A stretch of 35,874 nucleotides of DNA from Ruminococcus sp. (lineage in GTDB: Bacteria > Bacillota > Clostridia > Oscillospirales > Ruminococcaceae), in NCBI GenBank assembly GCA_022641595.1, contig JALCDN010000012.1, positions 1 through 35,874 on the forward strand, written 5' to 3'. The translations under genes and the position numbers were made by a program. The notes beneath the pieces are model-generated. The model ran no database searches. It was given only the letters and a program-made list of their open reading frames with translations, and was not told where the DNA came from. Within the stretch, counting starts at the first letter, position 1; each line of letters opens with the position of its first letter. This document shows positions 2,195 through 35,773 of this stretch, piece after piece.

Positions 2195-2201
2195 CAGGAT
2201 C

Positions 2202-2275
2202 TGGAGGCGCCACCCAGATTTGAACTGGGGATCAGGGTGTTGCAGACCCACGCCTTACCACTTGGCTATAGCGCC
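2202..2275 (-). tRNA. tRNA-Cys (GCA)
   Basis: 74 bases with encoded CCA. The acceptor pair GGCGCTA / TGGCGCC closes fully. The seven-base anticodon loop is CTGCAAC, giving GCA. It is the last gene of the four-tRNA transcript. Confidence 0.95.
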
Positions 2276-2277
2276 GT

Positions 2278-2353
2278 TGGAGCGGATTACGAGGTTCGAA
2301 CTCGCTACCTCCACCTTGGCAAGGTGGCGCTCTACCAAATGAGCTAAATCCGC
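2278..2353 (-). tRNA. tRNA-Gly (GCC)
   Basis: 76 bases with encoded CCA. Acceptor GCGGATT pairs with AATCCGC. The anticodon loop contains GCC. Two bases separate it from tRNA-Cys. Confidence 0.95.
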
Positions 2354-2355
2354 AA

Positions 2356-2432
2356 TGGCGACCCGGATGAGGCTCGAACTCACGACCTCTAGCGTGACAG
2401 GCTAGCGTTCTAACCAACTGAACTACCGGGCC
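2356..2432 (-). tRNA. tRNA-Asp (GTC)
   Basis: 77 bases with encoded CCA. Acceptor GGCCCGG pairs with CCGGGTC. The anticodon loop CTGTCAC gives GTC. Confidence 0.95.
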
Positions 2433-2437
2433 AAGAA

Positions 2438-2513
2438 TGGTGGGAACTATAGGGCTCGAACCTATGACCCTCTGCTTGTAAGGCAGATGCTCTCCCAGCT
2501 GAGCTAAGCTCCC
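2438..2513 (-). tRNA. tRNA-Val (TAC)
   Basis: 76 bases with encoded CCA. Acceptor GGGAGCT pairs with AGTTCCC (one G-T pair). The anticodon loop CTTACAA gives TAC. It is the first gene of the tRNA transcript. Confidence 0.95.
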
Positions 2514-5640: not shown

Positions 5641-8373
5641 TTAGATATCTCTGACTGTTTTTTCGTTTATTACGGAGTGTATTTTGCAATTATGAATAGC
5701 TGGTGAATCGTCATTTGAAGCGATGTCTACAGGAGTAGCGGCAGAAATTATGATATCAATATTTGAGTCTGAAACAGAAATGCTGCCATTTGCGAGTGAA
5801 TCACCAATGCCTACAGCATCGTCGCCCTCTGAGTTGATATTAACGGAGCAGTTTCTGATATGTGACGAAATATTACCATTTATTGTACCGATGCACGAAT
5901 GTTTAGCGGAACGCATACGGACATCTATTTCACCTGCTGATACATTAATAGAGCCTTCGCCGTTTTCGACAGAACCAATGCCCACGGCCTGAGCGCCGGA
6001 ACAGGTGATATTTATTTCTGAAGCGGAAGAAATTTCGGTTGAGCCGCAGAAGCTGCCGATGCCGCCAATTTTAATTCCTGCAATGCTGATGTTAGCTTTG
6101 AAGCTTTCTGACAGTTCAATTATTGAGTTGCCGTTGAAAGAACCTACAGCAAGACCGTTTCTTGCGTGAAGATCAATATCGAGAGCACCTGAAATGAGTT
6201 TGATTTCTGAATCGTCATAGTTGAATCCGCCGCCGATGCAGACGATGTTATCGCCGTTTGCGATGATGCTGAGTGAGCCGGACATATTGATAAAAATGTC
6301 GCCATAAGGGTGTTCAAAGTCGTTACCGACAGTAACGCCATTTGGAGTGCAGGTGTCGATGATAAGTTCACCGCCGCCTTTGATTTCGAGTTGAGAGCCT
6401 TGTGGGACGTAAATACCTGATTCACTGATGAAATTTTTCTTGATGATATTAAGCTCAAGTCTTGAATATTCGCCGAGTGAAATTGTAGGTTTGTCGTTGC
6501 CGCTTGCGATGTTGACATTTTTGAGGGTAAGCTCGCAGCTTGAGTTATCCATAACCGAGATATTCATAATGACCTGTTTGCTTATGTCGCCGTTAATAGT
6601 AAGTTTGCTTTGTTGAATCTGGATATCGGTATATTTTTCGAGAGCGAGTTTAACGAGGTCAATTTCCTTGTCATTTCTTGCGGTATAGATTTTTTTAGAG
6701 CCGATAGAGCGGGCTTCGAGGTTAGTTTTGATAATTTCGTCGAAAACGTCCGAGGAAATTTTATCAAGGAAGAGTGGTTTAGGTTTTGAAGTATAATAGC
6801 CCTGAATGAAATCGACGCCCATTCTTATAACGGTTTTCATTTCGGCAGAAGTTTCAACGCCTTCGGCGAGAGAGAGAAGCTGATTATCATGGCAGAAAGC
6901 GACAACTGAAGCGACAAGCTGTTGTTTTTTGAGGTCGTTATTGATGTCGCAGATAAGTGAGCGGTCGATTTTGATGTAATCAGGGGTATATTTAAGGAGA
7001 TTTGCACTGTTTGAGTAGCCCTTGCCGTAGTCGTCGATAGCAAGCTGAGAGTGAACGAATTTGCAGCGACGTTTAATAGTTTCGATATTAGTTGAGTCAG
7101 CCTGAGCGTTTTCTGTGATTTCAATGACAACTTTTTCGAATAGCTCACCATAGGTGATGTAAAGTTCATTGAAGTCATCGTCGTTTAGTAGGCAGTCTGA
7201 GATGCAGTTGATAAAGAGTTTTCTGTCAGCGAAGAATTGCTGATTGTCGCTGAGGAACTTGAGAGTATTGGTGAAAGTAGCTTTTTCTACGGCATAGAGA
7301 CTGTTTTGTTCAGCAGCAATTTTAAGTAGCTGAAGTGGTGGCATACTAATGTCGCCCGTAGTACGCATAAAGGCTTCATATGCTATAATAGAGCCTGTTT
7401 TGGCGTCAACAACCGGCTGAACGTGGTATGTAAGAAGATTCTTGTGAATAATTTTATTAAAGATCTGAGCATTTCTGTAGGCATCTTTTTCGCTGATATA
7501 GTTGTCTTCATTGAACCAGTTTACGACGCTTCTTTTGTATGAGCGAGCTTCATAGAGGGCAAATTCGGAGTAATTAACGAGCATATTGAATTCGTAAGCC
7601 TGATCCGGGAAAGAGCAGCAGCCGATGGAAAGGCTTAGAGTAGTTTTATCGGAGATATCGATAATTTCGCCGAAATCGTCAGCAGGAATGCAGCTTTGAA
7701 CGGCTTCGTCCATACTGTTGAGGAGGTTGTTGACAGACATTCTGTCATAATCGACGAACAGGATACAGATTTCGTGGTGTGATTTAGCACCGATTATAAT
7801 TCTGTCGGAAGCGAATTGATTGATAGCTTCTGCGACGGAGGTAATGCAGTGATTTGTGTTTTCGACAGTCAGGAAAGTGCCGAGTTTGTCAATGTTATTG
7901 AGGTGAATAGTTGCGAGACAGCAGGTTTTTGCGGCAGGCAGCATTTCTCTTACCCTGTATGTAAAAGAAGAGTAAGAGAGAAGTCTTGTAAGCTGGTCGC
8001 AGTCAGAAGCACTTCGTTCACGGCGGCTGTCGTAGATTTGTCTTGTATAGTCCTGAACGAAACCGAGCCAGACATCGCTGTTTTCGAAGATATTCATTTT
8101 GATGAAATAAGTTTTGCTGTCTGTTGAGTAAGAATATATATGTTTTTGACCCTCGACGGGTTTTTTAGAAATTTTGTCAAGGAGGTTAAAAAATTCATAT
8201 TCATTAATTTTCTCGTGACTGCAATTAAGAATTTTGCATGACATAGCGTCCATATAAGCAGTCTTTTCTTTGGCTATGTAAGTGAAAGCGCCTATATTGC
8301 CCATAAATTTCTGAAAAAGCTCCCAGTCGCCGCTGAGTGAGACATTATTTTTTTCAAAATTAAAAATACTCAT
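5641..8373 (-). CDS. PAS-like/degenerate GGDEF/EAL protein with C-terminal beta-helix-like region
   Basis: A 910-residue cytosolic protein with no signal peptide or membrane segment. Residues 1-118 look PAS-like. Residues 119-290 are GGDEF-like, but the motif is SHHEI (198-202), so diguanylate cyclase activity is unlikely. Residues 305-545 are an EAL phosphodiesterase domain: the motif is EAF (333-335), while N389, E418, D447-D448 (DDYG), K468, E504 and Q524 (QGY) are in place, so c-di-GMP hydrolysis is plausible. Residues 585-905 are repetitive, with GIG or VG turns about every 20-28 residues and short Ser/Asn beta strands, as in right-handed beta-helix surface proteins. The ATG at 8373 follows AAGGAGCC; the frame's earlier start lacks one. 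It leads into ychF. The beta-helix reading is inference. Confidence 0.85.
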   Translation of the reverse strand: MSIFNFEKNNVSLSGDWELFQKFMGNIGAFTYIAKEKTAYMDAMSCKILNCSHEKINEYEFFNLLDKISKKPVEGQKHIYSYSTDSKTYFIKMNIFENSDVWLGFVQDYTRQIYDSRRERSASDCDQLTRLLSYSSFTYRVREMLPAAKTCCLATIHLNNIDKLGTFLTVENTNHCITSVAEAINQFASDRIIIGAKSHHEICILFVDYDRMSVNNLLNSMDEAVQSCIPADDFGEIIDISDKTTLSLSIGCCSFPDQAYEFNMLVNYSEFALYEARSYKRSVVNWFNEDNYISEKDAYRNAQIFNKIIHKNLLTYHVQPVVDAKTGSIIAYEAFMRTTGDISMPPLQLLKIAAEQNSLYAVEKATFTNTLKFLSDNQQFFADRKLFINCISDCLLNDDDFNELYITYGELFEKVVIEITENAQADSTNIETIKRRCKFVHSQLAIDDYGKGYSNSANLLKYTPDYIKIDRSLICDINNDLKKQQLVASVVAFCHDNQLLSLAEGVETSAEMKTVIRMGVDFIQGYYTSKPKPLFLDKISSDVFDEIIKTNLEARSIGSKKIYTARNDKEIDLVKLALEKYTDIQIQQSKLTINGDISKQVIMNISVMDNSSCELTLKNVNIASGNDKPTISLGEYSRLELNIIKKNFISESGIYVPQGSQLEIKGGGELIIDTCTPNGVTVGNDFEHPYGDIFINMSGSLSIIANGDNIVCIGGGFNYDDSEIKLISGALDIDLHARNGLAVGSFNGNSIIELSESFKANISIAGIKIGGIGSFCGSTEISSASEINITCSGAQAVGIGSVENGEGSINVSAGEIDVRMRSAKHSCIGTINGNISSHIRNCSVNINSEGDDAVGIGDSLANGSISVSDSNIDIIISAATPVDIASNDDSPAIHNCKIHSVINEKTVRDI

Positions 8374-8660
8374 TTGAGGCTCCTTTATACTATAGCAGTT
8401 CGACAAAATAATGCAAGTAATAGAGTAAATAAAGCTTTCTGATGATTATATACAATTATGAAAGTCAGCGATATTTTATTTTTCATTTCTGCGTTATTTT
8501 ATTGGATTGCTATAAAAATCGTTATCAAAATAATTATACCTCATTTTGCAAAAGAAGTCAACGGAAAATACAAATTTTACGGTTTAGAAATAATTTAATT
8601 TGTGTGAAATGTTAAAACAAGTTCATATAAATGATGTGATATTTTAAATTTAAATATGAA
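8374..8660. other. AT-rich intergenic stretch
   Basis: About 290 bases without a gene between the EAL gene start and the padR terminator. I see only poor candidates for the EAL gene promoter, such as TATAAT on the minus strand near 8447 without a convincing -35 box. Confidence 0.4.
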
Positions 8661-15377: not shown

Positions 15378-16985
15378 TTATGCCGAACGTTGGTCATATA
15401 TTTTGAAAGCACTTTTTTCAAATTTATGTTTTACGTCATACATTGCGATATCTGAAAATTTAAGAAGCTCATCAACGCTGATTGATTGCTGTGGATAGAG
15501 GGCAATTCCGATGCTTGATGAAAGTCTGAATGTCAGGTGCGGATTGCCGTCATCATCGTAATTGATGACAGGGGAGTCAGTTTTTTCGCAAATGGAGCAG
15601 GCTATTGAGTTTACTGAGCTTAAAAAGTCATCATCTGAATTTTTATTGAAGATAAAAACAATCATAAATTCGTCGCCGCCCATACGGAAAGCGGTGCAGT
15701 TTTCGGGTGATACAGACATAAGTCTTTTTCCGATTTCTCTGAGAACGAAATCGCCCATATCGTGACCGAATTTATCATTTATGGGTTTGAAGAAGTTTAA
15801 GTCGAGTGAGAAGAAAGCGAGCTTTACTGAATTGTCTTTTTCAATTAGTTCTTTTATAAACATTGTGAAATAGTGTCTGTTGAAAAGACCGGTTAGTGAA
15901 TCGATAGTGGCGATTTTTTCGAGATACTTGTTTATGTCACGAAGCTCACGGGTTTTTTCGGCGACAATTTTTTCAAGACGAGCGTTTTCAGTTTTCTGAG
16001 TTTCGAGAAGTTTGCTGTAAAGTTCGCCTGATTCAAGACTTTTATGTGCAACAACGTATGCAAGTGAAATTATAAGCATACTGTAAAGCTCAGATGATGA
16101 TATATATGAAAGCGAGTATAGAACAATTGAAATAGCGGAAATAATGAAGACATTTATCCATATGAATTTATTAGCTGATTTTATATCGTATCTGATTTTA
16201 AGTTTATGGAAGTTGTCTTTGATGTTAATGTTTACGTTTGCATTTGAAATACATAGAGCGTAAATCATAATACTGCCGAGGTAAATTATATCGATGTAAA
16301 TGCTTTCAGCGTCTTTTGACTGGGTTACATAGTATGAGTATCTTGCTTCGAATATATTATAAATAGTGAAAAAAATTGCAATAATGTGATATTGTTTGCT
16401 TTTGTTGCGAAGTCCTGTCTGAACGATAAGCAGAATCATCATAATTGTAGCAAAAAGTATAGCAAAGAAGTAAAACATAGTGCTGAGAATTTCGAAATTC
16501 ACACCGCTTTTAGGATTCGGGTCTACTTTTAAGGCAGTAATAACGAAGGCGAAAGAAACGTAAGTAAGCATAAATGTGTCGATTAGGAGTCTGTAGAAAT
16601 CGGTTTTATCCAAACCAGTTTTAGCGTAGAGAACAACAACTGTGAAGAACATATAGTCAGGCAGAAGGTACATTTTGTCAGTAAGAGCCATAAGAAAAGG
16701 ATTATCAACAGCTATATATGTATAGGAAAATAAAAGAACATCGGAAATAAACCAGAAAAAGAATCCCAAAGCAAATGTTATACCGCAAGGCTTCAGTGGG
16801 CCAAGCTTTTTTAGTGAAGCTAATGTAATAACGGATGCAGTTAAGGCTGTAAGAGGAGAAAAGACGTTATAAATCTTATCTTTATTAGCCAATACAGCTA
16901 TTGAATATACAAACCATAATATAACGAGCAAAATTCTTAAGGTTTTAATTAAAGGTATTTTTTGTTGCACTTTAGTTTTATCCAA
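15378..16985 (-). CDS. Membrane diguanylate cyclase (GGDEF)
   Basis: A 535-residue sensor-like enzyme that should make c-di-GMP. Residues 12-310 hold about nine or ten hydrophobic segments, residues 318-358 a coiled-coil linker, and residues 359-530 a GGDEF domain with intact GGDEF (436-440), DSLTGLFNRH and SLDLNFFKPINDKFGH. No RxxD inhibitory site stands before the motif, so product inhibition may be absent. The start is TTG at 16985, placed by GGGAGGAA just before it; there is no nearby ATG in frame. A promoter lies at 17073-17101. The gene stands alone downstream of the phosphodiesterase operon. The signal sensed by the membrane part is unknown. Confidence 0.92.
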   Translation of the reverse strand: MDKTKVQQKIPLIKTLRILLVILWFVYSIAVLANKDKIYNVFSPLTALTASVITLASLKKLGPLKPCGITFALGFFFWFISDVLLFSYTYIAVDNPFLMALTDKMYLLPDYMFFTVVVLYAKTGLDKTDFYRLLIDTFMLTYVSFAFVITALKVDPNPKSGVNFEILSTMFYFFAILFATIMMILLIVQTGLRNKSKQYHIIAIFFTIYNIFEARYSYYVTQSKDAESIYIDIIYLGSIMIYALCISNANVNINIKDNFHKLKIRYDIKSANKFIWINVFIISAISIVLYSLSYISSSELYSMLIISLAYVVAHKSLESGELYSKLLETQKTENARLEKIVAEKTRELRDINKYLEKIATIDSLTGLFNRHYFTMFIKELIEKDNSVKLAFFSLDLNFFKPINDKFGHDMGDFVLREIGKRLMSVSPENCTAFRMGGDEFMIVFIFNKNSDDDFLSSVNSIACSICEKTDSPVINYDDDGNPHLTFRLSSSIGIALYPQQSISVDELLKFSDIAMYDVKHKFEKSAFKIYDQRSA

Positions 16986-18999: not shown

Positions 19000-21240
19000 T
19001 TAAAAAACCTGCCTTTCTGAAGCATTGTGTTCAAAGAAAGCTGGAATCTCATCAGCAGGCATAGGCTTGCCGTAAAGGTAGCCCTGAGCGTAGTCGCAGC
19101 CTGTTTCACGAAGAATAGTGGCTTGACGAGGAGATTCTATGCCTTCAGCAATTGTTTCGATTTTTTTGGATTTGGCGATTTTTATGACAGCGGAAACGAT
19201 TTCGTAAGCGATAGGGTCGTTTTCGATATCTATTATGAAAGAACGGTCGAGCTTCAGCAGGGTAATTGGGAGTATCTGGATATAGCTCAGTGATGAGTAG
19301 CCGGTTCCGAAGTCGTCCATAGCGAGCTTTACGCCGAGGTCACGGAGCTGGTTCATTTGAAATACTGCATAGTCAACGTCACGCAGAGCCATTCTTTCGG
19401 TAAGCTCTACCTCAAGCCATTCCGGATTAAGACCTGAGCGGACGAGGGCATCGAAAACACGTTCCTTGAGGTCTTTTTTGTAGAAGTCGTCCGAGGTAAA
19501 ATTGATTGACATAATTATGGGAGGGTATCCCATACGTTGCCAGAGCATATTCTGGTCGCAGGCTTCATTGAGGACGAAGTCGCTGATTTTTCCGATAAGG
19601 TGAGAGCTTTCGGCGATAGGTACGAAATAGCTTGGAGCGATGATTGTACCGTCTGGTTTTATCCAGCGAACGAGAGCTTCAACGCCCATAAATTTGCCTG
19701 TAGCGATTTCGATTTTAGGCTGATAGAAAAGTTTGAGTTCGTTGTTGTCGATAGCATCTGAGAGAGCTTTTTCGAGTTCGTTGTCGCCGATAATAGCGTC
19801 GTGCATACTGCTTTCGTAGGCGCAGATGCTGCATCTTGAGTCTATGCCTGATTTAAGGGCAAATTCGGCGTGTTCGAGGACATCGAGGAAGCAGTTTCCG
19901 TCGGACGGCATTTTTGAGTAGCCTGCCGAGCAGGTAAATGACTGATTTGAAAATTCGTCAACAGCGAGGTCTGCAAAGTCTTTTTGCAGAAGTTCGATTG
20001 TACGTTGAGGGAGGTCATCATCGCCGTAGTCTCTTATGATAATAGCGAAGTTATCGCCGCTGATTCTTGCGGCGAGACCGCCTATAGAGATGTATTTATA
20101 GAGGTTGTGGGCGAAATTTTTGAGTAATTTGTTACCGCTTTCGTAGCCGCAGGTGTCATTGACGATATGGAAACGGTCGATATCTATAACGATAACCCAG
20201 TAAGCATAATTCAGAGCGTTGCAGCATTCGTAAGTTTCCTGACCTATTTTGACGAGTTTGTTTCTGTTTGGAATATCTGTAATCTCGTCGACGTAGGCAA
20301 GTTTTTCAATAAGCAGGTCTTTTTCACGTTCCATAGTGATATCGAGGAAAGCACCGCCGATGACAGGAAAGTCAGAATTTACGTCTTCGATTGCCTTGAA
20401 TCTGTATGAGTACCAGCGATAGGTGCCGTCATGAGATTTCACTCTGATTTCGATGCAGGATATTTCGGCAGAAAGGGCGGTATCTGAAAGAAGAAGTTTT
20501 ATATGTCTGTCATAATTTGAGCGGTCGTTCGGGTGAATGAGGCATCTGAATTCATTAAAAGAGATTTCGGGTTTTTTCAGACCGAGCATACGCATCATTT
20601 CGGGTGAAGCGAAGTATTTCTGAGAGCCTTGACTTATAAGTATACCTATTTCTGAAAGCTCCATAGAAAGGTTGAATCTTTCGCTTGTGTCTGATAGACG
20701 GGATTGAACCTGTTTGAGTTGAGTGATATTAAAGCCGGTGCTGAAATACAGAGAAAATTTTTTGTTTTGTTTCAGAATTGATGTACTCCAGATTATGCAT
20801 TGTTGTGTTCCGTCAGCACCGCAGAAATGGCATTCTCCGTAATTGTCCATTATAGCGGAATTTATGCTTTTAGGGTTTATTTCATCGAGGCAGAAGATTT
20901 TTTTAATTATCTCCTCGTTATTGAAGTCACTTGTAGTAATTCCGAGAAGTTCACGGAGTTTTTTATTAAGGAAAACGGCAGAGCAGTCATTAGTCCATAG
21001 AACGATTTCGGTATTAAGGTCTTCAATGATTTCAGATATTTCGTTAGTATTGATAGAGGTATGCGAAAGACTGAAGATGTAGTTAGCTGTGGCGAAAATA
21101 ATCCAGAGAATTATTACGGTAGTGGTAAATACTGAAAGAATCAGTGAAGATTCATCACTGTGAATTTTTGAGTAAGCGATGACGATAGCTGTTGCAGCAG
21201 ACATAACGAGTGAAATAATTAATGAAGATTTTGGTTTCAT
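19000..21240 (-). CDS. PAS-GGDEF-EAL c-di-GMP phosphodiesterase
   Basis: A 746-residue membrane-bound signalling enzyme that should break down c-di-GMP. Two hydrophobic segments (7-24, 33-56) are followed by two PAS-like domains (about 68-175 and 185-305; the second ends in the GTYRWYSYRFKAI pattern). A GGDEF domain with SGDNF (394-398) cannot be a normal cyclase but may bind GTP. The EAL domain (486-735) is complete: EAL (521-523), N580, E612, DDFGTGYSS (642-650), K663, E699 and QGY (719-721). GGGGAGGAA stands before the ATG at 21240. A consensus promoter lies at 21305-21333. It heads an operon with hlyIII and pfkA. Confidence 0.95.
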   Translation of the reverse strand: MKPKSSLIISLVMSAATAIVIAYSKIHSDESSLILSVFTTTVIILWIIFATANYIFSLSHTSINTNEISEIIEDLNTEIVLWTNDCSAVFLNKKLRELLGITTSDFNNEEIIKKIFCLDEINPKSINSAIMDNYGECHFCGADGTQQCIIWSTSILKQNKKFSLYFSTGFNITQLKQVQSRLSDTSERFNLSMELSEIGILISQGSQKYFASPEMMRMLGLKKPEISFNEFRCLIHPNDRSNYDRHIKLLLSDTALSAEISCIEIRVKSHDGTYRWYSYRFKAIEDVNSDFPVIGGAFLDITMEREKDLLIEKLAYVDEITDIPNRNKLVKIGQETYECCNALNYAYWVIVIDIDRFHIVNDTCGYESGNKLLKNFAHNLYKYISIGGLAARISGDNFAIIIRDYGDDDLPQRTIELLQKDFADLAVDEFSNQSFTCSAGYSKMPSDGNCFLDVLEHAEFALKSGIDSRCSICAYESSMHDAIIGDNELEKALSDAIDNNELKLFYQPKIEIATGKFMGVEALVRWIKPDGTIIAPSYFVPIAESSHLIGKISDFVLNEACDQNMLWQRMGYPPIIMSINFTSDDFYKKDLKERVFDALVRSGLNPEWLEVELTERMALRDVDYAVFQMNQLRDLGVKLAMDDFGTGYSSLSYIQILPITLLKLDRSFIIDIENDPIAYEIVSAVIKIAKSKKIETIAEGIESPRQATILRETGCDYAQGYLYGKPMPADEIPAFFEHNASERQVF

Positions 21241-26136: not shown

Positions 26137-26201
26137 TTATATCTCAGGCAAGATATAATAACTTGTTTTCATAAACCTATGAGTGCACCTTTTAAAAGGT
26201 G
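26137..26201 (+). promoter_or_regulatory. Two palindromes in the GH26 leader
   Basis: TTATATCT (26137-26144) and AGATATAA (26151-26158) form a perfect 8-bp inverted repeat with a six-base spacer and overlap a second TATAAT (26154-26159). Next, CACCTTTTAAAAGGTG (26186-26201) is a perfect 16-base palindrome. They may be operator sites or RNA hairpins controlling the cellulosomal operon; no regulator gene is adjacent. Confidence 0.45.
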
Positions 26202-26260
26202 TGTATTTCATAGCTATAGGCAAAATAATAGGCAAATTGTTAATTTTGGAGGAATACAAT

Positions 26261-28093
26261 ATGAATATCAGAACGGCAAAAAAGCTGCTCTGCACATTTA
26301 TTGCGGCTGCTATGACTATAGGCGGTACAGGCAGCTCAGCTATTTTTGAATGCTTCGGTGCAGAAACCAGCACAATAACGGCAGAATTTGAAAAAGGTAC
26401 AACAAGTGGCGGAAAAATTTATTCAGAGGGTTGGTCTGGCAAAAATGAAGCAGGTGATGCTTATGACCTTACAAACGCTTCAGGTGGAGCTTTCTCTTAT
26501 CTTGATCAGAAAGGTACTAAAGTCAGCGTTGAGGTTACAGTACCCGAAACAGGTCTCTATAATCTCAATATCTGTTACTGTCAGCCAAATGATACAAATA
26601 AAAAAGTACAGTATCTCAATGTAAACGGTAAAAATCAAGGCGAAGTAACTTTTCCGTATAATCTTAAATTCGAGGAAACTTCAGCTGGCATTGTTATGCT
26701 TCAGAAAGGCTCTAATACAATAGAATTTGAGGGCTACTGGGGTTACACCTATTTTGATTATCTTAAAGTCTCTCCTGCTGATGAAAGCGTAACTTCACTT
26801 AAACCTTCAAGGACACTATCAAATGCAAAGGCTTCAGATTCAACAAAACGTCTTTATAACTACCTTTGCGATACATATGGCAAGCACATAATCTCAGGTC
26901 AGCAGGAATATTGCGGCTCTCATAACTATAACCTCTATGCTGACCCAACTAATTTTATTAAGGACAATGAAGCTGAATTTACTTATATAAAAGAAAAAAC
27001 AGGCAAAATGTGTGCTATAAGAGGCATAGATTTTCTGAATTACGGTACTTGCTCAGGTTGGGACGATAATGCTGCTGAACGTGCTGCTCAATGGGTTAAT
27101 GAGTATAAGGGAATTGCCACAATTACATGGCATCTCAGCGTTCCGTCCAAAGAGGGCGATACAACAGGTGCTTTTTACGTTAAATCCGCAAGTGCAACAT
27201 ATACAACATTTAGTATCTCAAATGCTCTTAAAGAGGGTACTTGGGAAAATAAAGTACTGATGAAAGACATAGAAATAATTGCAGGCAAACTCAAAATTCT
27301 AAAGGACGCCGATGTTCCTGTGCTGTGGCGTCCATTACACGAGGCCGAGGGCGGCTGGTTCTGGTGGGGTGCAGAGGGTGCTGAGCCTTGCAAAAAGCTC
27401 TATCGTCTGCTTTATGACCAGCTTACAAATGTATACGGTCTTGATAACCTTATCTGGGTATGGACAGGTTCAACTTCTCCTAATGCCTCAAAATGGTACC
27501 CGGGTGACGATGTTGTCGATATAGTCGGCTACGATAAGTATAATGCAAAGGACGGTCTGCCAAACTTAAGTGCAATAAGTGCAACATTCTACAGCCTTGT
27601 AAGTGGTGTAAACGGTAACAAAATGGTCACGATGTCCGAAAACGACACCATTCCGTCTCTTGATAACCTCACAAGCGAAAAAGCAGGTTGGCTCTATTTC
27701 TGCCCTTGGTATATGAATTATCTGACATCTGAACAGAATAATCCTGTTGACAATCTTGTCGAAGTCTATAATAGTGACTACTGCATAACTCTCGACGAGC
27801 TTCCAGACCTCAAAACATACCCTATGGCTTCCGAACAGCCGTCAGCTACAACTTCTACAACATCTTCTTCTGCAACTACGGCTTCAAAATCGGCTACTAT
27901 GCTTGGCGATGCCAATTGCGACGGAAAAATTGATATCTCAGATGTAGTTGCTGTAAGAAGATTCCTTATAAATTCGGAAAAATTTTCGCTTTCTGCAAAT
28001 GGCTTGGCAAATGCCGATGTACATGAAAGCGGTAACGGCATCAATGCTCAGGACGCTGTTGCAATTCAGAAAACTGTATTTGGCTTAAAATAA
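26261..28093 (+). CDS. Dockerin-bearing GH26 beta-mannanase with CBM35
   Basis: A secreted cellulosomal endo-beta-1,4-mannanase. The 610 residues comprise a signal peptide (1 to about 35), a CBM35-like domain (39-174, ending GYTYFDYLKV), a GH26 barrel (about 190-520), a Ser/Thr linker (527-545) and a type I dockerin (548-610). The barrel has LWRPLHEAEGGWFWWG with acid/base Glu361, and VTMSEND with nucleophile Glu460. Dockerin loop 1 is DANCDGKIDISD; loop 2, DVHESGNGINAQD, has the extra residue seen in all four dockerins here. I chose the ATG at 26261 because GGAGG precedes it by eight bases; the longer frame lacks one. PL10 follows after 18 bases. manA in the same window can use released mannose after phosphorylation. 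Confidence 0.93.
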   Translation: MNIRTAKKLLCTFIAAAMTIGGTGSSAIFECFGAETSTITAEFEKGTTSGGKIYSEGWSGKNEAGDAYDLTNASGGAFSYLDQKGTKVSVEVTVPETGLYNLNICYCQPNDTNKKVQYLNVNGKNQGEVTFPYNLKFEETSAGIVMLQKGSNTIEFEGYWGYTYFDYLKVSPADESVTSLKPSRTLSNAKASDSTKRLYNYLCDTYGKHIISGQQEYCGSHNYNLYADPTNFIKDNEAEFTYIKEKTGKMCAIRGIDFLNYGTCSGWDDNAAERAAQWVNEYKGIATITWHLSVPSKEGDTTGAFYVKSASATYTTFSISNALKEGTWENKVLMKDIEIIAGKLKILKDADVPVLWRPLHEAEGGWFWWGAEGAEPCKKLYRLLYDQLTNVYGLDNLIWVWTGSTSPNASKWYPGDDVVDIVGYDKYNAKDGLPNLSAISATFYSLVSGVNGNKMVTMSENDTIPSLDNLTSEKAGWLYFCPWYMNYLTSEQNNPVDNLVEVYNSDYCITLDELPDLKTYPMASEQPSATTSTTSSSATTASKSATMLGDANCDGKIDISDVVAVRRFLINSEKFSLSANGLANADVHESGNGINAQDAVAIQKTVFGLK

Positions 28094-28111: not shown

Positions 28112-29449
28112 ATGAAGAAAGCATTTAAGTTTTGTACTGCAATTCTTGCCGTAATGGCAATAACAGTTGCTCCTGCAAGCGGTCAAATGTACAAAAGCCT
28201 GTCTGTTTCGCCAATAACTGCATCTGCCGCTGACAAAACCGCATATGACTGGAGTGGTATGCTTAAAAAAGACGACAGTTGGTTCAACTCATCTGACGCA
28301 ATTTCAGTTGCCGAGGATATTCTCAAATATCAAAACAGCGATGGCGGCTGGAAAAAAGTTATGGAAGGCAATGCTTCAGGCGACTGGTCAAAATCAACAA
28401 TTGATAATGAAGGCACAACTTCAGAAATCAGATTTCTTGCAAGAGTTTACAAACAAACAGGAACTGAAAAATATAAAAATGCGTGCCTTAAAGCTATAGA
28501 TTTACTTTTAAAATCTCAGTACGATAACGGGGGCTGGCCTCAGTGCTTCGGACTTACAAACGGTTACCACATTCACATAACCTACAATGATGACGCAATG
28601 ATTCATGTTTTACAGATTATGCGTGAAATTGCATCAACAAGCGGAGATTTTACTTTCGTTGACGAAAACTATGCCAACCTCGCAAATAAATCTGTAGAAA
28701 AAGGCATACGTTGCATTCTTGATACACAAATTACTTCTCAAGGTGTTAAAACTGCATGGTGTCAGCAGCATAACGAGAAAACACTTAAACCTGATTCCGC
28801 AAGAGCGTATGAACTTCCGTCAATATGTACAGGCGAAAGTGTAGGTATAGTGAATTTTCTTTTGTCAGTCAAAAATCCTTCAAACGAAATTAAGGAAAGC
28901 ATAAATTCTGCTATCTTATGGATGAAAAAATCTCAGCTTGACGGTATTAAAATAGTTGAGGAAAATGGCGACAAAAAAGTAGTTCAGGACGTAAACGCAA
29001 GCCCTGTCTGGGCAAGATTCTATGAGCTTGATACTAATAAACCTATGTTCGTAGATCGTGACGGCTCAAAGCATTATGACTGGTCCGAAATAAGTCAGGA
29101 ACGCCGTACAGGCTACGCATGGTATGGCTCATGGCCTAACACACTTGTAAAAATGAATACTCTGCCTATTGACGATACAGAGAAAACTACTTATGAAACT
29201 GCTGCTACAACCACTGTGACAACATCATCTTCCTTGTCAAAAATCATCAGAGGAGATTCTAACAATGATGGCAATGTAGATATCTCTGATGTCGTAGCTT
29301 TGCGTAGGTATCTTCTGAATAAGAGTACATATGCACTTTCAGATGAGGCAATCGCTAATTCAGATGTTTCCGGAGACGGTAACGGCATTAACGCTCAGGA
29401 CGCCGTTGCAATTCAGCAGTTCATTATCGGGCTGACAGATTCATTATAA
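28112..29449 (+). CDS. Dockerin-bearing PL10 pectate lyase
   Basis: A secreted lyase that cleaves polygalacturonate (the pectin backbone) by beta-elimination, normally with calcium. The 445 residues comprise a signal peptide (1 to about 39), a PL10 catalytic domain (about 44-352), a short Thr/Ser linker, and a type I dockerin (380-440). PL10 features are YQNSDGGW, NGGWPQ, HITYNDDAM, TAWCQQHN, SARAYELPS and PVWARFYEL; Arg302 in the last is a likely catalytic residue. Dockerin loops are DSNNDGNVDISD and DVSGDGNGINAQD. AAGGGG lies before the ATG. It is the middle gene of the operon with GH26 and GH9, so one transcript supplies enzymes for mannan, pectin and cellulose. Confidence 0.9.
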   Translation: MKKAFKFCTAILAVMAITVAPASGQMYKSLSVSPITASAADKTAYDWSGMLKKDDSWFNSSDAISVAEDILKYQNSDGGWKKVMEGNASGDWSKSTIDNEGTTSEIRFLARVYKQTGTEKYKNACLKAIDLLLKSQYDNGGWPQCFGLTNGYHIHITYNDDAMIHVLQIMREIASTSGDFTFVDENYANLANKSVEKGIRCILDTQITSQGVKTAWCQQHNEKTLKPDSARAYELPSICTGESVGIVNFLLSVKNPSNEIKESINSAILWMKKSQLDGIKIVEENGDKKVVQDVNASPVWARFYELDTNKPMFVDRDGSKHYDWSEISQERRTGYAWYGSWPNTLVKMNTLPIDDTEKTTYETAATTTVTTSSSLSKIIRGDSNNDGNVDISDVVALRRYLLNKSTYALSDEAIANSDVSGDGNGINAQDAVAIQQFIIGLTDSL

Positions 29450-29526
29450 TTTTAGGCAACATTGTGTATATCAGGGACTTTCCTACGAAATTCCCAAAAA
29501 TATTTATTAAAACAGGAGGAAAAATA

Positions 29527-31995
29527 ATGACAAGCAAATCGATCTTCAAAAGAGTGAAAACAATTGCTATATGTGCAGCGGTAGCTTCATCTGCTCTTGT
29601 TTTCCCGTCCGGTTCGGCAAGTGCAACAGCTGATGTCAACTTTGCAAAAGCTTTGCAATATTCAATTTACTTCTATGACGCAAATATGTGCGGAACAGGT
29701 GTAAGTGAAAACAATCGCTACAAATGGAGAGGTGACTGCCACACATATGATGCAAAAGTTCCGCTTCAACCTATGGACGCATCAAGCGTCGGCACAAACC
29801 TTTCACAAACTTTTATCGACAAGTATAAAGACGTACTTGACCCGGATGGTGACGGATGTGTAGACGTTTCAGGCGGCTTTCACGATGCAGGTGACCACGT
29901 TAAATTCGGTATGCCTGAAAACTACTCTGCTGCAACTCTCGGCTGGGGCTACTACGAATTCAGAGATTCATATGTAAAAACCGGTCAGGACGACCACATC
30001 GAAACAATTCTGCGTTACTTCAATGACTACCTTATGAAATGCACTTTCCGTGACAAAAGCGGAAACGTTGTTGCTCACTGCTATCAGGTAGGCGATGGCG
30101 ACATCGACCATAAATATTGGGAAGCTCCGGAAATTGATGAAATGGCAAGACCTGCATTTTTCCTTACAGGTGACAAGCCTCAGACCGATTATGTTGCTTC
30201 GGCAGCAGCTTCACTTGCAATAAATTATCTCAATTTCAAGGACACAGACCCGGATTATGCTGCAAAATCACTTGATTATGCAAAGGCACTTTTCTCGTTT
30301 GCTCAGTCACACGAAAAACAACTAAGCGATAATGGCGACGGTCCAAAATCTTATTATAATTCCTCTAAGTGGCAGGACGACTACTGTTGGGCTGCGGCAT
30401 GGCTTTTCAAGATAACCGGTGATCACAGCTACCTTGAGGAAATTTACCCTAATTACGATTTCTACGCTGCTCCTTGTTATGTTTACTGCTGGAACGATAT
30501 GTGGGGCGGAGTACAGTGTCTGCTCGGCGAAATATCAGCAAAAACTCCTGCTAAACCTGGCGAACATACATACCCTAATTTCATCGATGAGTTTAAGGTT
30601 GCTGCCAAAAAAAGTCCTTATGAAGAAATGAACTGCTGGGACTCAGTTGCAAAGGCTATGGGTGCATATATGACCGGAGGAGTAGGAACAATTACTCCGG
30701 CAGGCTATTTTTGGCTCAATACATGGGGCTCGGCAAGATACAATACTGCCGCTCAGCTTATAGGCCTTGTTTATGATAAGTACAACGGAACAAAAAAATT
30801 CAGCGACTGGGCTGAAGGTCAGATGAAGTACCTTATGGGTGATAATCCTATTGACAGATGCTATATCGTTGGTTACAGCGCAAATTCAGCTAAATTTCCT
30901 CACCACAGAGCAGCCTCCGGTCTTTCTAAATGTGAGGACACTGCCGATCAGCTTCACGTTCTGTATGGTGCACTCGTAGGCGGTCCTGATGCTAAGGATC
31001 AGCATAACGATATCACTAAGGACTGGATCTACAACGAAGTTACAATTGACTATAATGCAGCTTTTGTAGGTGCTTGTGCAGGTCTATACAATAGCTATGC
31101 AACTTCTGATATGACCGTTACTCCTGATTTTCCTCCTGTTGAAAAAAGCAACGGCAAAACAGGCGGAAATAATTTCTGGGTTAACGCTTATGCTGCCGAT
31201 GACTTCCAGACAACAGGCTCAGGCGTTACTAAAATTGCTTCACTTATGATGACTGACTCTATTTCACCTAAAACTGACCTTTCAATGAGATATTTCTTCA
31301 GTATAAAAGAAATGTCAAATAAAGCAAATATCAGTCTTGTAAAAGCTACGGAGCTTTATGACCAGTCTTCTGTTGAGGCTGCTCCGGCTGACGGCGTAAT
31401 ATCAGGTCCTTTCCAGTACAATGCCGCTTATGACCCTGATATTTACTACGTTGAGGTAAAATGGGACGGTTACAAAATCGCAAATGCAAATAAAAAATAT
31501 CAGTTCTCATTAGGCTTTTACTACGGCGACAAATGGGATCCTACAAACGACTGGAGCTATCAGGGAATTACAAAATGTCCTGATACCTACAGCGACGGCA
31601 GCGAAACTAAAACCGACCATATCTGCGTTTATTCAAACGGAGTTCTTGTTGGCGGTATCGAGCCTGACGGAACTACTGTAACCGAACCAGCTACAGATCC
31701 GACAACAACTACAAATATTACTACCACAAAGGCTGCTGTAACTACAACCAAAACTGTTACAACAACTGCTGCAAGTTCAAATGTCTACGGCGATGCCAAC
31801 GCTGATGGAAAGGTTGATATCTCAGATGTTGTTCTTATAAGACGCTATCTTATAAATTCAAAGAAATATCCGATAACCGCCAAAGGCTTGGTAAATTGCG
31901 ATGTTCACAGTCAAGGAAACGGCATAAATGCTCAGGACGCTGTTGCAGTACAGCAATTCGTTTTCGGTACAGTAAAGGCTCTCCCTGTAAGCTGA
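29527..31995 (+). CDS. Dockerin-bearing GH9-CBM3c cellulase
   Basis: A secreted, probably processive endoglucanase of the GH9 type with a fused CBM3c, which feeds the cellulose chain to the active site. The 822 residues comprise a signal peptide (to about 33), a GH9 (alpha/alpha)6 barrel (36-525), CBM3c (about 545-690, starting FWVNAYAADDFQTTG), a Thr-rich linker (about 718-753) and a type I dockerin (755-822). Catalytic features are SGGFHDAGDHVKFG with Asp120 and Asp123 and YNEVTIDYNAAF with acid Glu504; FPHHRAAS is also present. The ATG at 29527 follows GGAGG; the longer frame lacks a binding site. Its dockerin is nearly the same as that of the gene at 32568. Last gene of the operon. Confidence 0.95.
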   Translation: MTSKSIFKRVKTIAICAAVASSALVFPSGSASATADVNFAKALQYSIYFYDANMCGTGVSENNRYKWRGDCHTYDAKVPLQPMDASSVGTNLSQTFIDKYKDVLDPDGDGCVDVSGGFHDAGDHVKFGMPENYSAATLGWGYYEFRDSYVKTGQDDHIETILRYFNDYLMKCTFRDKSGNVVAHCYQVGDGDIDHKYWEAPEIDEMARPAFFLTGDKPQTDYVASAAASLAINYLNFKDTDPDYAAKSLDYAKALFSFAQSHEKQLSDNGDGPKSYYNSSKWQDDYCWAAAWLFKITGDHSYLEEIYPNYDFYAAPCYVYCWNDMWGGVQCLLGEISAKTPAKPGEHTYPNFIDEFKVAAKKSPYEEMNCWDSVAKAMGAYMTGGVGTITPAGYFWLNTWGSARYNTAAQLIGLVYDKYNGTKKFSDWAEGQMKYLMGDNPIDRCYIVGYSANSAKFPHHRAASGLSKCEDTADQLHVLYGALVGGPDAKDQHNDITKDWIYNEVTIDYNAAFVGACAGLYNSYATSDMTVTPDFPPVEKSNGKTGGNNFWVNAYAADDFQTTGSGVTKIASLMMTDSISPKTDLSMRYFFSIKEMSNKANISLVKATELYDQSSVEAAPADGVISGPFQYNAAYDPDIYYVEVKWDGYKIANANKKYQFSLGFYYGDKWDPTNDWSYQGITKCPDTYSDGSETKTDHICVYSNGVLVGGIEPDGTTVTEPATDPTTTTNITTTKAAVTTTKTVTTTAASSNVYGDANADGKVDISDVVLIRRYLINSKKYPITAKGLVNCDVHSQGNGINAQDAVAVQQFVFGTVKALPVS

Positions 31996-32567: not shown

Positions 32568-35288
32568 ATGAAAAAAATGATTTCACTTATGTCAGCTGCG
32601 GCAATTACATTTTGCTCTATTCCGGGTATTGTTTGTGAATCGTATGTAAAAGCAGAAGATTCGCTTATGACTCGTGATGTGTGGTGCAATAATGAAGACG
32701 TTAACCGATGGGAATCAGAGCATTTTCAGTTCATCTGGGGCAAAAACGGTTCGGATTCTGCAAAAATAACACAGTCGTTTCTGGAGGAAAATGCTCGCCA
32801 TCTTGAAGCCTGCTGGGACGTTTACATGAATGAGCTGTCAATGGAGCCGCCTACACAGTCGGTAAATTCGTCTCTGCGTGATGGCAATAAGTACAAGGTG
32901 AATTTTTACATTTCCGGCACAGGTCTTTCAGCGTTTAAAGATGACTGGGCATATATGGGTTATGATAGTCAAGGCTATGCGTTTATGTTCTGCTGCGTTG
33001 GTGCAATGCAGAATAGCCCGAATCCTTCGTGGGTTCTGCCACATGAATTTGGTCATGTGGTAACAGCACATCAGCTTGGCTGGAACAGCAATAAATATGT
33101 TCAGGCATGGTGGGAGGCTATCGGCAACTGGTATCGTGAACAGTTTCTTTATTCCAATTATTACAACCAATGGGTAACCGATCAGTCAAGTGGTACGGAC
33201 TATTTCGAGACATATATGAAAAACCTCCATTTTACACCAATTCTTGGACGTGACAACTACGCTTCGTGGGCATTTCTTGAGTACCTCACGGAAAATCCTG
33301 ATAATCTTCCCGGATATGGCAGCAGCTTTGTGAAAGACCTTATGCAGCAGGGACAACATGACGAATATCCGTATCTTGAAATAGAGCGGATTTCCGGTGC
33401 TGACATCAAGGATACGCTTGGCAATTATGCAAAGCGTATGGCTACGCTTGACTTGAAAAAACAGGCTTCTTATCGTGCAAAACAGAACGAGCTTCTCTCT
33501 CGTGGTGAGTGGAATTGGGGACAGATATTTACTGTCCTTGAAAATAACGGCGATAATTATTACACCGTTCCTACCGAAAGAGCACCACAGCAGTTTGGAT
33601 TGAATATTGTGCCGCTGAAAGTGACCGGCGATAAGATTTCCACTACGCTTCATGGACTTACCAATGTAAAGGGTGCTGACTGGAGAGCTTGTATCGCTAT
33701 TGAGCAAAAAGACGGAAAAACCAGATATTCTGACCTTTTCAGCAATGGTCAGACAGCCGAAATGACATACGACCCACAAAATGATTCAGCCGCATATCTG
33801 ACTGTTACGGCAACTCCTGATTCAGATACATGGGTGAAGTGCGGTGTGCCGTGGGCTTATGGTGATGGTGAATTTGACGAGAATAATTTTCCGTTTCTTA
33901 GCAAAACACGCTATCCATATGCTGTTACGCTGACAGGTGCTGATGTTCAGAAAAGTGGCAATAATTCGGCTGATGACGGACATATTCACTCCAACGGCGG
34001 CGGTTTTGTTTCTAACTCTGCACAGGTTGATGATTCCGTATATGTTGGCAAAAACGCAAAGGTACTTGGCAATGCAACTGTAACTGGAAATGCTGTAATT
34101 GACGGATATGCAATTGTCAGCGGAAATGCGTCTGTTTCGGGTCATGCAGTTGTGACAGGTCACGCAGTAGTTTCTGAAAGAGCCAATGTAAAAGATAATG
34201 CTATAATCGCTGATTCCGCCGGAGTTATGGGAAATTCAGTGGTTTCAAACTACGGCAGAGTAATTGAAAGCGGTCTTGTATATGATAATTACACTGTCAG
34301 CGGAAATGCAACAGTAAAAGGTACAGCATTCTGTATGGTCAATGGTTCGGCTACAGGTCAGGCAATGCCGGATGGCGATTATTATGACGATTCAAGCCGC
34401 ACAGTTAAGGCAGGTTCAATGTTCGGTTGGACAAGCCCAGACAGCTATGTAAATAGTCGTAAGTACAACGACGGTCAGGGTGCTGGACTTGAATTTGAAA
34501 CACCAAGTTCGTTCGTTGCGGAGGATAAGTTTACATCTACATATGGCACAGTTGCCGGTTCGCCGGTCTGGGACAATGTGAAAACAAGTGGAAATGGCGT
34601 ACTTACATTCAATGGCAAGGATCAGTATGTAATCGCCGACAGCTCCTACGCAATGTTACATGATGCCGAGTATCAGACGGCTGTTCTGCTCCGTGACAAT
34701 AATGAAAACGTTGTATTTAATTTTGGAAATGCTAAAAAATATATGAAACTGACAGCTAAAGACGGTACGTTCACGTTTGCTGTAAACGACGGAAACTCCG
34801 TTAAGACCGTTGAAGCAAAGAATGCGTATGAGCTTGGAAAATGGACAGATGTAAGCGTGTCACTTATTGGTGATACGGCTTCTGTAACAGTCAACGGACA
34901 AACTGCTGCAACGGCAAATATAACTGCCGACCCTATTGATATAACATCCGAATCAGCAAAATATCGCATTGCAGATGGTATGAACGGCTCAATGGATTTC
35001 TTCCGTGTCAATTTTAAAGATACCGCTGAACCTTCATATTATTATACAGAATCTGAAGATGTTTCAAAGCAAGTTTCGATAATGGGTGATGCAAATGTTG
35101 ACGGCAAGGTTGATATCTCAGACGTTGTTCTTATAAGACGCTATCTTACAAATTCAAAGAAATACCCGATAACCGCAAAAGGCTTGGAAAACAGCGATGT
35201 TCACGGTCAAGGAAACGGCATAAATGCTCAGGATGCTGTTACAGTACAGCAGTTTGTCCTTGGAAATATCTCGGCACTTGCACTATAA
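32568..35288 (+). CDS. Dockerin-bearing gluzincin-like protein with left-handed beta-helix and LamG-like domain
   Basis: A 906-residue secreted cellulosomal protein of unknown function. Order: signal peptide (1 to about 28), a zincin-like domain (about 40-320) with HEFGH (159-163) and candidate third ligand Glu183 (WWEAIGNWY), resembling what I recall as DUF6055, a beta-sandwich-like region (about 340-460), a left-handed beta-helix (484-600) of hexapeptides such as NATVTG, NAVIDG and HAVVTG, a LamG/concanavalin-like domain (about 645-818) and a type I dockerin (838-906). HEFGH plus a downstream Glu suggests a zinc metallopeptidase; no substrate can be named. Hexapeptide helices are mostly cytosolic acyltransferases, so a secreted one is odd. 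The ATG follows GGGGGG by eight bases. Two MITEs separate it from the GH9 operon. Confidence 0.82.
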   Translation: MKKMISLMSAAAITFCSIPGIVCESYVKAEDSLMTRDVWCNNEDVNRWESEHFQFIWGKNGSDSAKITQSFLEENARHLEACWDVYMNELSMEPPTQSVNSSLRDGNKYKVNFYISGTGLSAFKDDWAYMGYDSQGYAFMFCCVGAMQNSPNPSWVLPHEFGHVVTAHQLGWNSNKYVQAWWEAIGNWYREQFLYSNYYNQWVTDQSSGTDYFETYMKNLHFTPILGRDNYASWAFLEYLTENPDNLPGYGSSFVKDLMQQGQHDEYPYLEIERISGADIKDTLGNYAKRMATLDLKKQASYRAKQNELLSRGEWNWGQIFTVLENNGDNYYTVPTERAPQQFGLNIVPLKVTGDKISTTLHGLTNVKGADWRACIAIEQKDGKTRYSDLFSNGQTAEMTYDPQNDSAAYLTVTATPDSDTWVKCGVPWAYGDGEFDENNFPFLSKTRYPYAVTLTGADVQKSGNNSADDGHIHSNGGGFVSNSAQVDDSVYVGKNAKVLGNATVTGNAVIDGYAIVSGNASVSGHAVVTGHAVVSERANVKDNAIIADSAGVMGNSVVSNYGRVIESGLVYDNYTVSGNATVKGTAFCMVNGSATGQAMPDGDYYDDSSRTVKAGSMFGWTSPDSYVNSRKYNDGQGAGLEFETPSSFVAEDKFTSTYGTVAGSPVWDNVKTSGNGVLTFNGKDQYVIADSSYAMLHDAEYQTAVLLRDNNENVVFNFGNAKKYMKLTAKDGTFTFAVNDGNSVKTVEAKNAYELGKWTDVSVSLIGDTASVTVNGQTAATANITADPIDITSESAKYRIADGMNGSMDFFRVNFKDTAEPSYYYTESEDVSKQVSIMGDANVDGKVDISDVVLIRRYLTNSKKYPITAKGLENSDVHGQGNGINAQDAVTVQQFVLGNISALAL

Positions 35289-35339: not shown

Positions 35340-35773
35340 TTGACACATATCAACAAGATAAAGTAAAATAAAAAAAGAATGGGAGTGTCATGAATGAGTA
35401 CAGAAAGAAAATACGATGATGAATTCAAAAGGCAAGCAGTAAAATTGGCAAAAGAAGTGGGAACAAAGGCGGCTATTGCGGAACGGTGTATTCCAAAAAG
35501 CACTTTACTGGCGTGGGTACGCAATGCAAATAATGGATTGATAGATATGGGTTCTGGCACACGTACATCGGAAGAATCGCTTAACCTTGCACAGCAGCTC
35601 CAAGTCGCAAATAAACACATAAAAGAGCTTGAAGAATTAAATGAGTTTTTGGAGGAAGCATCCGCTTTTTTCGCCGCGAACCGTTGGAAGTCGGCAAAGA
35701 AGAACGTATGAGATACATTGCCATAAAGACTGAAGTTGATTTCTTTATATCCGGAACTTTGATTCGAATTCAC
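35340..35773 (+). mobile_element. IS3-family element remnant
   Basis: The segment from about 35340 (a TTGACACATATCAACAAG left-end-like start, also a -35 box) through the orfA gene to 35773 looks like the left part of an IS3-family element. Only the start of orfB remains in the -1 frame (EERMRYIAIKTEV), ending at a stop at 35771-35773. An IS5-type end follows at 35778, so the rest was lost or displaced. Confidence 0.6.
35394..35711 (+). CDS. IS3-family transposase OrfA
   Basis: A 105-residue helix-turn-helix protein that binds the ends of an IS3-type element and is normally fused to OrfB by ribosomal frameshifting. It starts KYDDEFKRQAVKLAKEVGTK, has the recognition-helix part CIPKSTLLAWVR, and a leucine-zipper-like helix (LAQQLQVANKHIKELEELN) ending EEASAFFAANR. 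A T-rich run (CTTTTTTC) near the end is a possible slip site. The matching orfB is reduced to about 20 residues in the -1 frame, so no active transposase can be made from this copy. The start at 35394 is preceded by GGGAG. Confidence 0.85.
   Translation: MSTERKYDDEFKRQAVKLAKEVGTKAAIAERCIPKSTLLAWVRNANNGLIDMGSGTRTSEESLNLAQQLQVANKHIKELEELNEFLEEASAFFAANRWKSAKKNV

What the first reader, a model, noticed from the sequence alone, without database searches (positions are those of the whole stretch)
32568..35288. Cellulosomal protein with a zinc-peptidase motif, left-handed beta-helix and LamG-like domain
Most dockerin proteins are carbohydrate enzymes. This one has HEFGH (159-163) with Glu183 at gluzincin spacing, then a hexapeptide left-handed beta-helix, a lectin-like domain and a dockerin. 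It would place a protease or protein-binding module on the cellulosome, perhaps for plant wall glycoproteins, cellulosome processing, or defence. The beta-helix type is mainly known from intracellular acyltransferases.
Basis: partly seen in the sequence, partly recalled or inferred. Interest (0 to 1): 0.75.

Follow-up and report, generated by a model that had tools for sequence, protein, structure and literature searches.

The report
Cellulosome-docked Svx-type zinc peptidase
A fibre-degrading gut bacterium appears to bolt a protein-cutting enzyme, of a kind known from plant-rotting bacteria that cut plant wall glycoproteins, onto its cellulose-degrading machine, which would explain an unknown part listed in that machine's inventory.

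Summary
ORF 32568-35288 encodes 906 aa: signal-like start, DUF6055 with HEFGH (159-163) and Glu183, left-handed beta-helix, LamG domain, dockerin. DUF6055 plus beta-helix is the layout of Svx/AvrXca gluzincin peptidases (NF040510, E 1e-38 across both domains, though below its equivalog cut-off). Svx is a proven zinc peptidase that cleaves plant extensin and needs its beta-helix for that (PMC9266454, PMC13164431). The motif is kept in 14 of 14 family relatives and in 80 further loci, one residue being masked in one of them. 69 of 79 scanned tails hold a dockerin. R. flavefaciens FD-1 has a listed 'UNK(LbetaH-LamGL)-Doc' protein whose dockerin bound the ScaC cohesin (PMC5301203); this family probably is that 'UNK'. 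Best reading: a cellulosome-borne Svx-type peptidase cutting wall hydroxyproline-rich glycoproteins. Homology supports the peptidase; the substrate is inferred. A new variant of a known kind: the published Svx-like set is all Proteobacteria, and I found no paper naming a dockerin-bearing member.

The parts
32568..35288 (+). gene for the 906-aa dockerin-bearing DUF6055/Svx-type protein
   Evidence: ORF; domains
32568..32654 (+). signal-peptide-like N-terminus (residues 1-29)
   Evidence: read by eye from the sequence; no predictor run
32709..33950 (+). DUF6055 peptidase domain (residues 48-461)
   Evidence: PF19527 E 5.7e-41; one search gives the same coordinates
33030..33032 (+). Trp155, four residues before the first His; same offset as Svx W136 (predicted sugar pocket)
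   Evidence: mapped by offset from HExxH, no Svx sequence aligned
33042..33056 (+). HEFGH zinc/catalytic motif (residues 159-163)
33114..33116 (+). Glu183, third zinc ligand by gluzincin spacing (x19)
33126..33128 (+). Asn187, four residues after Glu183; same offset as Svx N171 (predicted sugar pocket)
   Evidence: mapped by offset
33999..34280 (+). left-handed beta-helix (about residues 478-571)
   Evidence: YdcK, LpxD-type models; profile to 2f9c 1.1e-12
34710..35003 (+). LamG / concanavalin-A-like domain (residues 715-812)
   Evidence: PF13385 4.2e-8; 4qvs 1.5e-7
35085..35258 (+). type I dockerin (residues 840-897)
29464..31995 (+). upstream neighbour: GH9 enzyme with a dockerin 81% identical to this protein's dockerin
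28112..29449 (+). neighbour: pectic acid lyase (PF09492) with dockerin
26183..28093 (+). neighbour: GH26-CBM35 protein with dockerin

Best explanation
A secreted Svx-type (DUF6055; MEROPS M106) gluzincin metallopeptidase plugged by its dockerin into the ruminococcal cellulosome. His159, His163 and Glu183 hold zinc and Glu160 is the catalytic base (inferred from homology to Svx, where mutating either motif glutamate lowered activity 3.1- and 3.5-fold). The beta-helix, with Trp155 and Asn187 near the active site, selects glycosylated rod-like substrate; the LamG domain adds sugar or wall binding (inferred). The substrate is most likely extensin or another hydroxyproline-rich glycoprotein of the plant wall (inferred). 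Cutting that cross-linked protein net beside cellulases, mannanases and pectin lyases would open the wall to them (inferred). Shown here: domains, motif conservation, homology to Svx over both domains, dockerin. Shown in print for relatives: zinc peptidase activity, extensin cleavage and need for the beta-helix (Svx); cohesin binding by the dockerin of the FD-1 look-alike.
For: DUF6055 5.7e-41; NF040510 Svx/AvrXca 1e-38 over 45-556, peptidase and beta-helix together, and matched by 15 of 15 family members; a 'putative metalloprotease' model, NF045524, by 4 of 15. HExxH, Glu183 and Asn187 in 14 of 14 relatives, which come from 13 other genomes among 247 searched; over 80 further loci plus the window, E160, H163, E183 and N187 in 81 of 81 and H159 in 80 of 81 (one masked X). 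Svx biochemistry: PMC9266454, PMC13164431. Trp155 and Asn187 sit at the offsets of Svx W136 and N171. Dockerin in 69 of 79 scanned tails at E up to 0.01. Own genome has 52 dockerin and 2 cohesin matches over the Pfam cut-offs. The dockerin of FD-1 UNK(LbetaH-LamGL)-Doc bound ScaC and none of the other cohesins tested. Neighbours GH26, pectic acid lyase and GH9 all carry dockerins; in relatives, dockerin is the commonest family among flanking ORFs (20 of 107; no formal background was computed).
Against: No activity or structure tested; prediction switched off. The NF040510 score is 133 against an equivalog cut-off of 625, so it is not an Svx equivalog and its specificity may differ. The third predicted sugar-pocket residue, Svx G137, is Val156 here (Val in 80 of 81 and Ile in 1), and Trp155 is Leu in 5 of 15 family members. 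The Svx residues docked to arabinan on the beta-helix lie at 551-570, beyond the aligned stretch (profile 39-543), so they could not be compared. GH127 arabinofuranosidase genes are not enriched with the family: over cut-off in 6 of 14 carriers against 92 of 247 genomes in all; the own genome has only a weak match (8.5e-4). No single neighbouring gene is conserved.
Confidence: 0.6

Rival explanations
1. A cellulosomal peptidase of broad specificity that frees amino acids from plant protein or processes cellulosome parts, with the beta-helix and LamG only as wall anchors.
For: Svx also degrades azocasein. The FD-1 survey totals 16 'peptidase' modules on dockerin proteins, of which 10 are transglutaminase-like.
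Against: In Svx the beta-helix is dispensable for azocasein but essential for extensin; here the whole peptidase-helix-LamG core is conserved together, which suggests selection for a particular substrate (inference).
Confidence: 0.17
2. An M60-like O-glycopeptidase for host mucin in the animal gut.
For: M60 genes show the same W-x3-HExxH and E-x3-N spacing; many record titles of relatives name gut, rumen or faecal samples.
Against: Profile comparison with M60 matches only 13-27 columns around the motif (probability 62%); Svx did not degrade porcine mucin; the protein carries a dockerin and lies next to plant-wall enzymes; true M60 genes occur separately in 10 of 99 relatives searched and not in the own genome.
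Confidence: 0.1
3. A catalytically dead scaffold or binding protein that keeps the fold.
For: I saw no report of activity for any ruminococcal member.
Against: HExxH and Glu are complete in the relatives examined, apart from one masked residue.
Confidence: 0.05
4. A peptidase against rival microbes or protozoa in the rumen, docked at the cell surface.
For: An FD-1 dockerin peptidase of group 4a binds the cell-surface ScaE cohesin.
Against: The dockerin of the FD-1 look-alike bound ScaC, not ScaE; this dockerin is closest to group 1-type ones and to the neighbouring GH9 dockerin.
Confidence: 0.05

Closest known systems
Svx / AvrXca peptidases (NCBIfam NF040510; Pfam DUF6055, which a passage of PMC11241649 links to MEROPS M106)
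   Same: Secreted; DUF6055 gluzincin domain followed by a left-handed beta-helix; HExxH...E; Trp and Asn at the same offsets.
   Different: Spacing x19 rather than x22; Val for Svx G137; LamG and dockerin added; Bacillota rather than Proteobacteria; 133 bits against a cut-off of 625.
R. flavefaciens FD-1 ORF01965 / ZP_06143476, UNK(LbetaH-LamGL)-Doc (PMC2930009, PMC5301203)
   Same: Same order of modules: unknown region, beta-helix, LamG-like, dockerin.
   Different: Group 6a dockerin that binds ScaC; the window's dockerin resembles group 1. I did not see the FD-1 sequence: that its UNK is DUF6055, and that the two identifiers are one protein, is inferred.
M60 (enhancin-like) O-glycopeptidases
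   Same: W-x3-HExxH and E-x3-N signature.
   Different: Similarity limited to 13-27 columns; the C. perfringens enzyme has no beta-helix domain according to PMC13164431.
R. flavefaciens papain-like dockerin peptidase (PMC3573020; search listing and start of abstract only)
   Same: Peptidase fold on a cellulosome-related protein.
   Different: Cysteine-peptidase fold; docks to ScaE.

Membership tests
DUF6055 (PF19527) / MEROPS M106 | Profile match over the curated Pfam cut-off | tested here: met
   141.3 bits against 27; the M106 label is from one passage of PMC11241649
Svx/AvrXca equivalog (NF040510) | Score over the curated cut-off of 625 bits | tested here: not met
   133.4 bits; a homologue, not an equivalog
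Svx-type two-domain peptidase | Gluzincin domain followed by a left-handed beta-helix | tested here: met
Gluzincin metallopeptidase | HExxHx(8,28)E, conserved in homologues | tested here: met
Gluzincin metallopeptidase | His, His and Glu meet at one zinc | not testable with these tools
   structure prediction switched off
Svx-type extensin specificity | Predicted sugar-pocket residues W136, G137, N171 | tested here: inconclusive
   W and N present, G is V; mapped by offset, no Svx sequence was aligned
Svx-type extensin specificity | Docked arabinan residues 551-570 at the end of the beta-helix | not testable with these tools
   outside the profile stretch aligned
Peptidase family M60 | Pfam M60 match | tested here: not met
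   no PF13402 among hits at E up to 10, although HMMER drops most matches above 0.1; no M60 match in the own genome; motif-level similarity only
Cellulosomal protein | Dockerin over cut-off in a genome that has cohesins | tested here: met
Cellulosomal protein | Dockerin binds a cohesin of the same organism | not testable with these tools
   shown in print only for the FD-1 look-alike

The most novel reading that the evidence does not exclude
Ruminococcal cellulosomes carry a dedicated extensin peptidase: a fourth wall-opening activity (against the protein network) beside cellulose, hemicellulose and pectin enzymes. Its core is kept while its plug is exchanged to fit the local scaffold: dockerin sequences differ strongly between orthologues, and in the R. 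albus lineage the dockerin is replaced by an fn3-like tail. The same enzyme type would serve as a virulence factor in plant-rotting bacteria and as a fibre-digesting part in gut bacteria.
Probability: 0.45. Interest if true: 0.75.

Novelty: new variant of a known kind. Interest (0 to 1): 0.5.

Why it matters
The FD-1 cellulosome survey left 118 dockerin proteins with regions of unknown function (PMC2930009). This work ties one such architecture to a peptidase type with a measured substrate, extensin. If right, protein cross-links in plant walls are a direct target of the rumen cellulosome, which bears on fibre digestibility and on designed enzyme mixtures, and it can be tested with one purified protein and a carrot extensin preparation.

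Tried and rejected
Structure prediction: switched off, so no zinc geometry and no fold search.

Hexapeptide register as a test of the beta-helix: not significant alone (257 of 5000 shuffles); profile matches were used instead.

M60 membership: rejected as membership; the similarity is 13-27 columns around the motif (62%, E 7e-5 for a single comparison), against 1.3% and 0.1% for the beta-helix and LamG controls.

Extensin-sugar catabolism as supporting context: GH127 is not enriched in carriers (6 of 14 against 92 of 247; the match list is cut, and the genome list was used).

Conserved gene neighbourhood: no single neighbour is conserved. The 107 ORFs were the immediate flanking ORFs of at least 180 aa; eight near-duplicate loci and ORFs with masked letters were left out beforehand, and long ORFs were cut to their last 600 aa. 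Dockerin is the commonest family (20 of 107); AraC-type HTH follows (12).

Wider spread: of 398 phylum genomes 3 pass the DUF6055 cut-off, one of them the own genome and the other two by partial matches; so within the phylum it looks like a family-level trait. Other phyla were not searched, apart from the control genomes (Bacteroides ihuae rang).

One search was a faulty first pass (minus-strand loci were read on the wrong strand) and was replaced. One search covered an irrelevant family and gave nothing.

The sets overlap: six genes, judged by equal contig lengths, occur in both (set aside). One search kept the best 80 of 208 relatives, and one of its two retrieval patterns contains Asn187, so the count for that residue is partly selected; HExxH and Glu183 are not in the patterns.

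In one search the own-genome scores are tblastn bits typed and the orthologue scores are blastp bits, so that comparison is approximate.

Paper searches were seen as listings only; none of their papers was opened for this question, except PMC13164431, already read in part.

Full report
What is there. The window lies in an incomplete assembly (own genome 1.97 Mb, 82 contigs, 81% complete) whose nearest relatives for this gene are mostly labelled Ruminococcus or Oscillospiraceae. ORF 32568-35288 encodes 906 aa. From the N-terminus: a signal-like stretch (by eye); DUF6055 at 48-461 (E 5.7e-41); a left-handed beta-helix at about 478-571; LamG at 715-812 (4.2e-8); a type I dockerin at 840-897 (1.6e-6). 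HEFGH lies at 159-163 and Glu183 follows after 19 residues.

Is it more than chance? The motif alone arises in 42 of 5000 shuffles, but the domain match settles the family. Of 247 genomes of the same family, 14 hold DUF6055 over the cut-off, the own genome among them; the other 13 give 14 proteins. All 14 keep His159, Glu160, His163, Glu183 and Asn187; Trp155 is kept in 10 of 15 including the window, the other five having Leu and forming one side of a fully supported branch. A scan of genome contigs found 208 relatives, of which the best 80 were kept. Over these 80 and the window, E160, H163, E183 and N187 are present in 81 of 81, and H159 and W155 in 80 of 81 with one masked residue each.

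What it is. NCBIfam's Svx/AvrXca model matches residues 45-556, covering peptidase and beta-helix in the same order, at 1e-38, and matches 15 of 15 family members; a 'putative metalloprotease' model (NF045524) matches 4 of 15. The score, 133 bits, is far below the equivalog cut-off of 625, so this is a homologue and not an Svx proper. A passage of PMC11241649 notes DUF6055 in a fungal peptidase of family M106 and calls the domain functionally uncharacterised. Svx of Pectobacterium atrosepticum is a zinc gluzincin: EDTA inhibits it, zinc restores it, and mutating either motif glutamate lowers activity 3.1- and 3.5-fold (PMC9266454, passages). It degrades carrot extensin but, under the same conditions, not porcine mucin or concanavalin A, and it loses extensin but not azocasein cleavage when its beta-helix is removed (PMC13164431: abstract, Results section, and part 1 of 2 of the Discussion). 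Its predicted sugar pocket uses W136, G137 and N171 (PMC9266454, section read). By offset from HExxH and the glutamate, W and N are present here (155, 187) and G is Val156. The profile of M60 glycopeptidases shares the W-x3-HExxH and E-x3-N pattern, but the profile alignment covers only 13-27 columns: a motif-level likeness, not membership.

How it is attached. The own genome has 53 dockerin matches (52 over cut-off) and 2 cohesin matches over cut-off. Of 79 C-terminal stretches scanned, window included (of 81; two were too short or masked), 72 have Laminin_G_3 and 69 a dockerin at E up to 0.01; at least three of the rest are cut by contig ends (L066, L069, L098). Ruminococcus albus 8, strain YE71 and one MAG (L061, itself cut by the contig end) have an fn3-like tail instead; the fn3 scores, 23, 24 and 16.5 bits, are below Pfam's cut-off of 25. 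These three form one group with full support inside the dockerin-bearing tree. Core identity to the window has a median of 67% and tail identity a median of 37% over 76 loci, while the window's dockerin is 81% identical to that of the adjacent GH9 enzyme and 61-62% to those of the adjacent pectic acid lyase and GH26. By approximate score, 26 of 33 other dockerin matches of the own genome are closer to it than any of 76 orthologue tails. I read this as a core that is inherited while the plug is exchanged, or homogenised, to suit the genome's own sockets.

What was already in print. R. flavefaciens FD-1 ORF01965 is listed as SIGN-UNK(LbetaH-LamGL)-Doc, group 6a (PMC2930009, passages). In PMC5301203 (passages, and part 1 of 2 of figures and tables), Table 1 entry 50 (ZP_06143476, the same architecture) is positive for the ScaC cohesin and negative for the others marked, B3 being blank. 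I did not see that sequence; that its UNK is DUF6055 is inferred from the architecture and from close relatives in named R. flavefaciens strains (L040, L048, L049, L077). The same survey totals 16 'peptidase' modules, 10 of them transglutaminase-like, among 222 dockerin proteins, so a peptidase on a cellulosome is not new in itself. The published set of 69 Svx-like proteins, gathered at 76% coverage and about 41% identity or more, is from Proteobacteria only (PMC9266454, section read), and the held main texts of the three Svx papers contain no mention of dockerin, cellulosome or Ruminococcus. Searches for DUF6055 (one paper), AvrXca with dockerin (none), dockerin with extensin and cellulosome (one paper, where extensin is mentioned for GH127), and two of Svx, cellulosome, Ruminococcus (354 papers, ten listed, none of the ten with Svx) showed no earlier link. 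This library lacks most subscription papers.

Mechanism. Most likely the dockerin brings a zinc peptidase beside cellulases, mannanase and pectin lyase; the beta-helix and the pocket residues favour glycosylated rod-like protein; cutting extensin or a similar hydroxyproline-rich protein loosens the wall. The peptidase step rests on homology and conservation, the substrate on Svx biochemistry, and the benefit to fibre degradation is inference.

What speaks against it. No structure or assay; below the equivalog cut-off; one pocket residue differs; the arabinan-docking stretch of Svx could not be compared; GH127 arabinofuranosidases are not enriched in carriers (6 of 14 against 92 of 247). No single neighbouring gene is conserved, although dockerin is the commonest family among flanking ORFs (20 of 107, no background computed).

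Changes on checking the draft: the group-1 dockerin naming, the make-up of the 16 peptidases, the sub-cut-off fn3 scores and the reading of the flanking dockerins were corrected. None of these called for a change in the odds.

Verdict. A real, conserved, ruminococcal, cellulosome-type branch of the Svx/DUF6055 peptidases: a new variant of a known kind, with a direct bench test.

Noticed in passing
L031:2829-5471 (+): A second DUF6055-LamG-dockerin gene (with a weak beta-helix hit, E 4e-4) lies just upstream of the orthologue: a tandem pair.
   Followed up: partly
L059, L060, L061 C-terminal tails: In Ruminococcus albus 8, strain YE71 and one MAG (contig-cut) the dockerin is replaced by an fn3-like tail (below Pfam's cut-off), as one supported clade inside dockerin-bearing ones.
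   Followed up: partly
L062 and L091: Two records labelled Alistipes fall inside Ruminococcus clades in the tree; probably mis-binned or mislabelled MAG contigs.
   Followed up: no
window 461-1006 and 35394-35711: IS66 transposase piece near the left end and an HTH_Tnp_1 transposase ORF near the right end.
   Followed up: no
window 1224-2513: tmRNA next to smpB and four tRNA genes in a row, all on the - strand.
   Followed up: no
L048:9319-11721 (-): An LRR-dockerin gene lies convergent to the R. flavefaciens ATCC 19208 orthologue; FD-1 lists an LRR-Doc gene (ORF01964) numbered next to the look-alike ORF01965.
   Followed up: partly
L122-L131 and L133-L141: Large open frames (1427-2086 aa) with M60 glycopeptidase domains over cut-off in 10 of 99 relatives searched; whether they carry dockerins was not looked at.
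   Followed up: no
window 5641-8406, 15378-16985, 19000-21240: Three GGDEF and/or EAL proteins within 16 kb.
   Followed up: no
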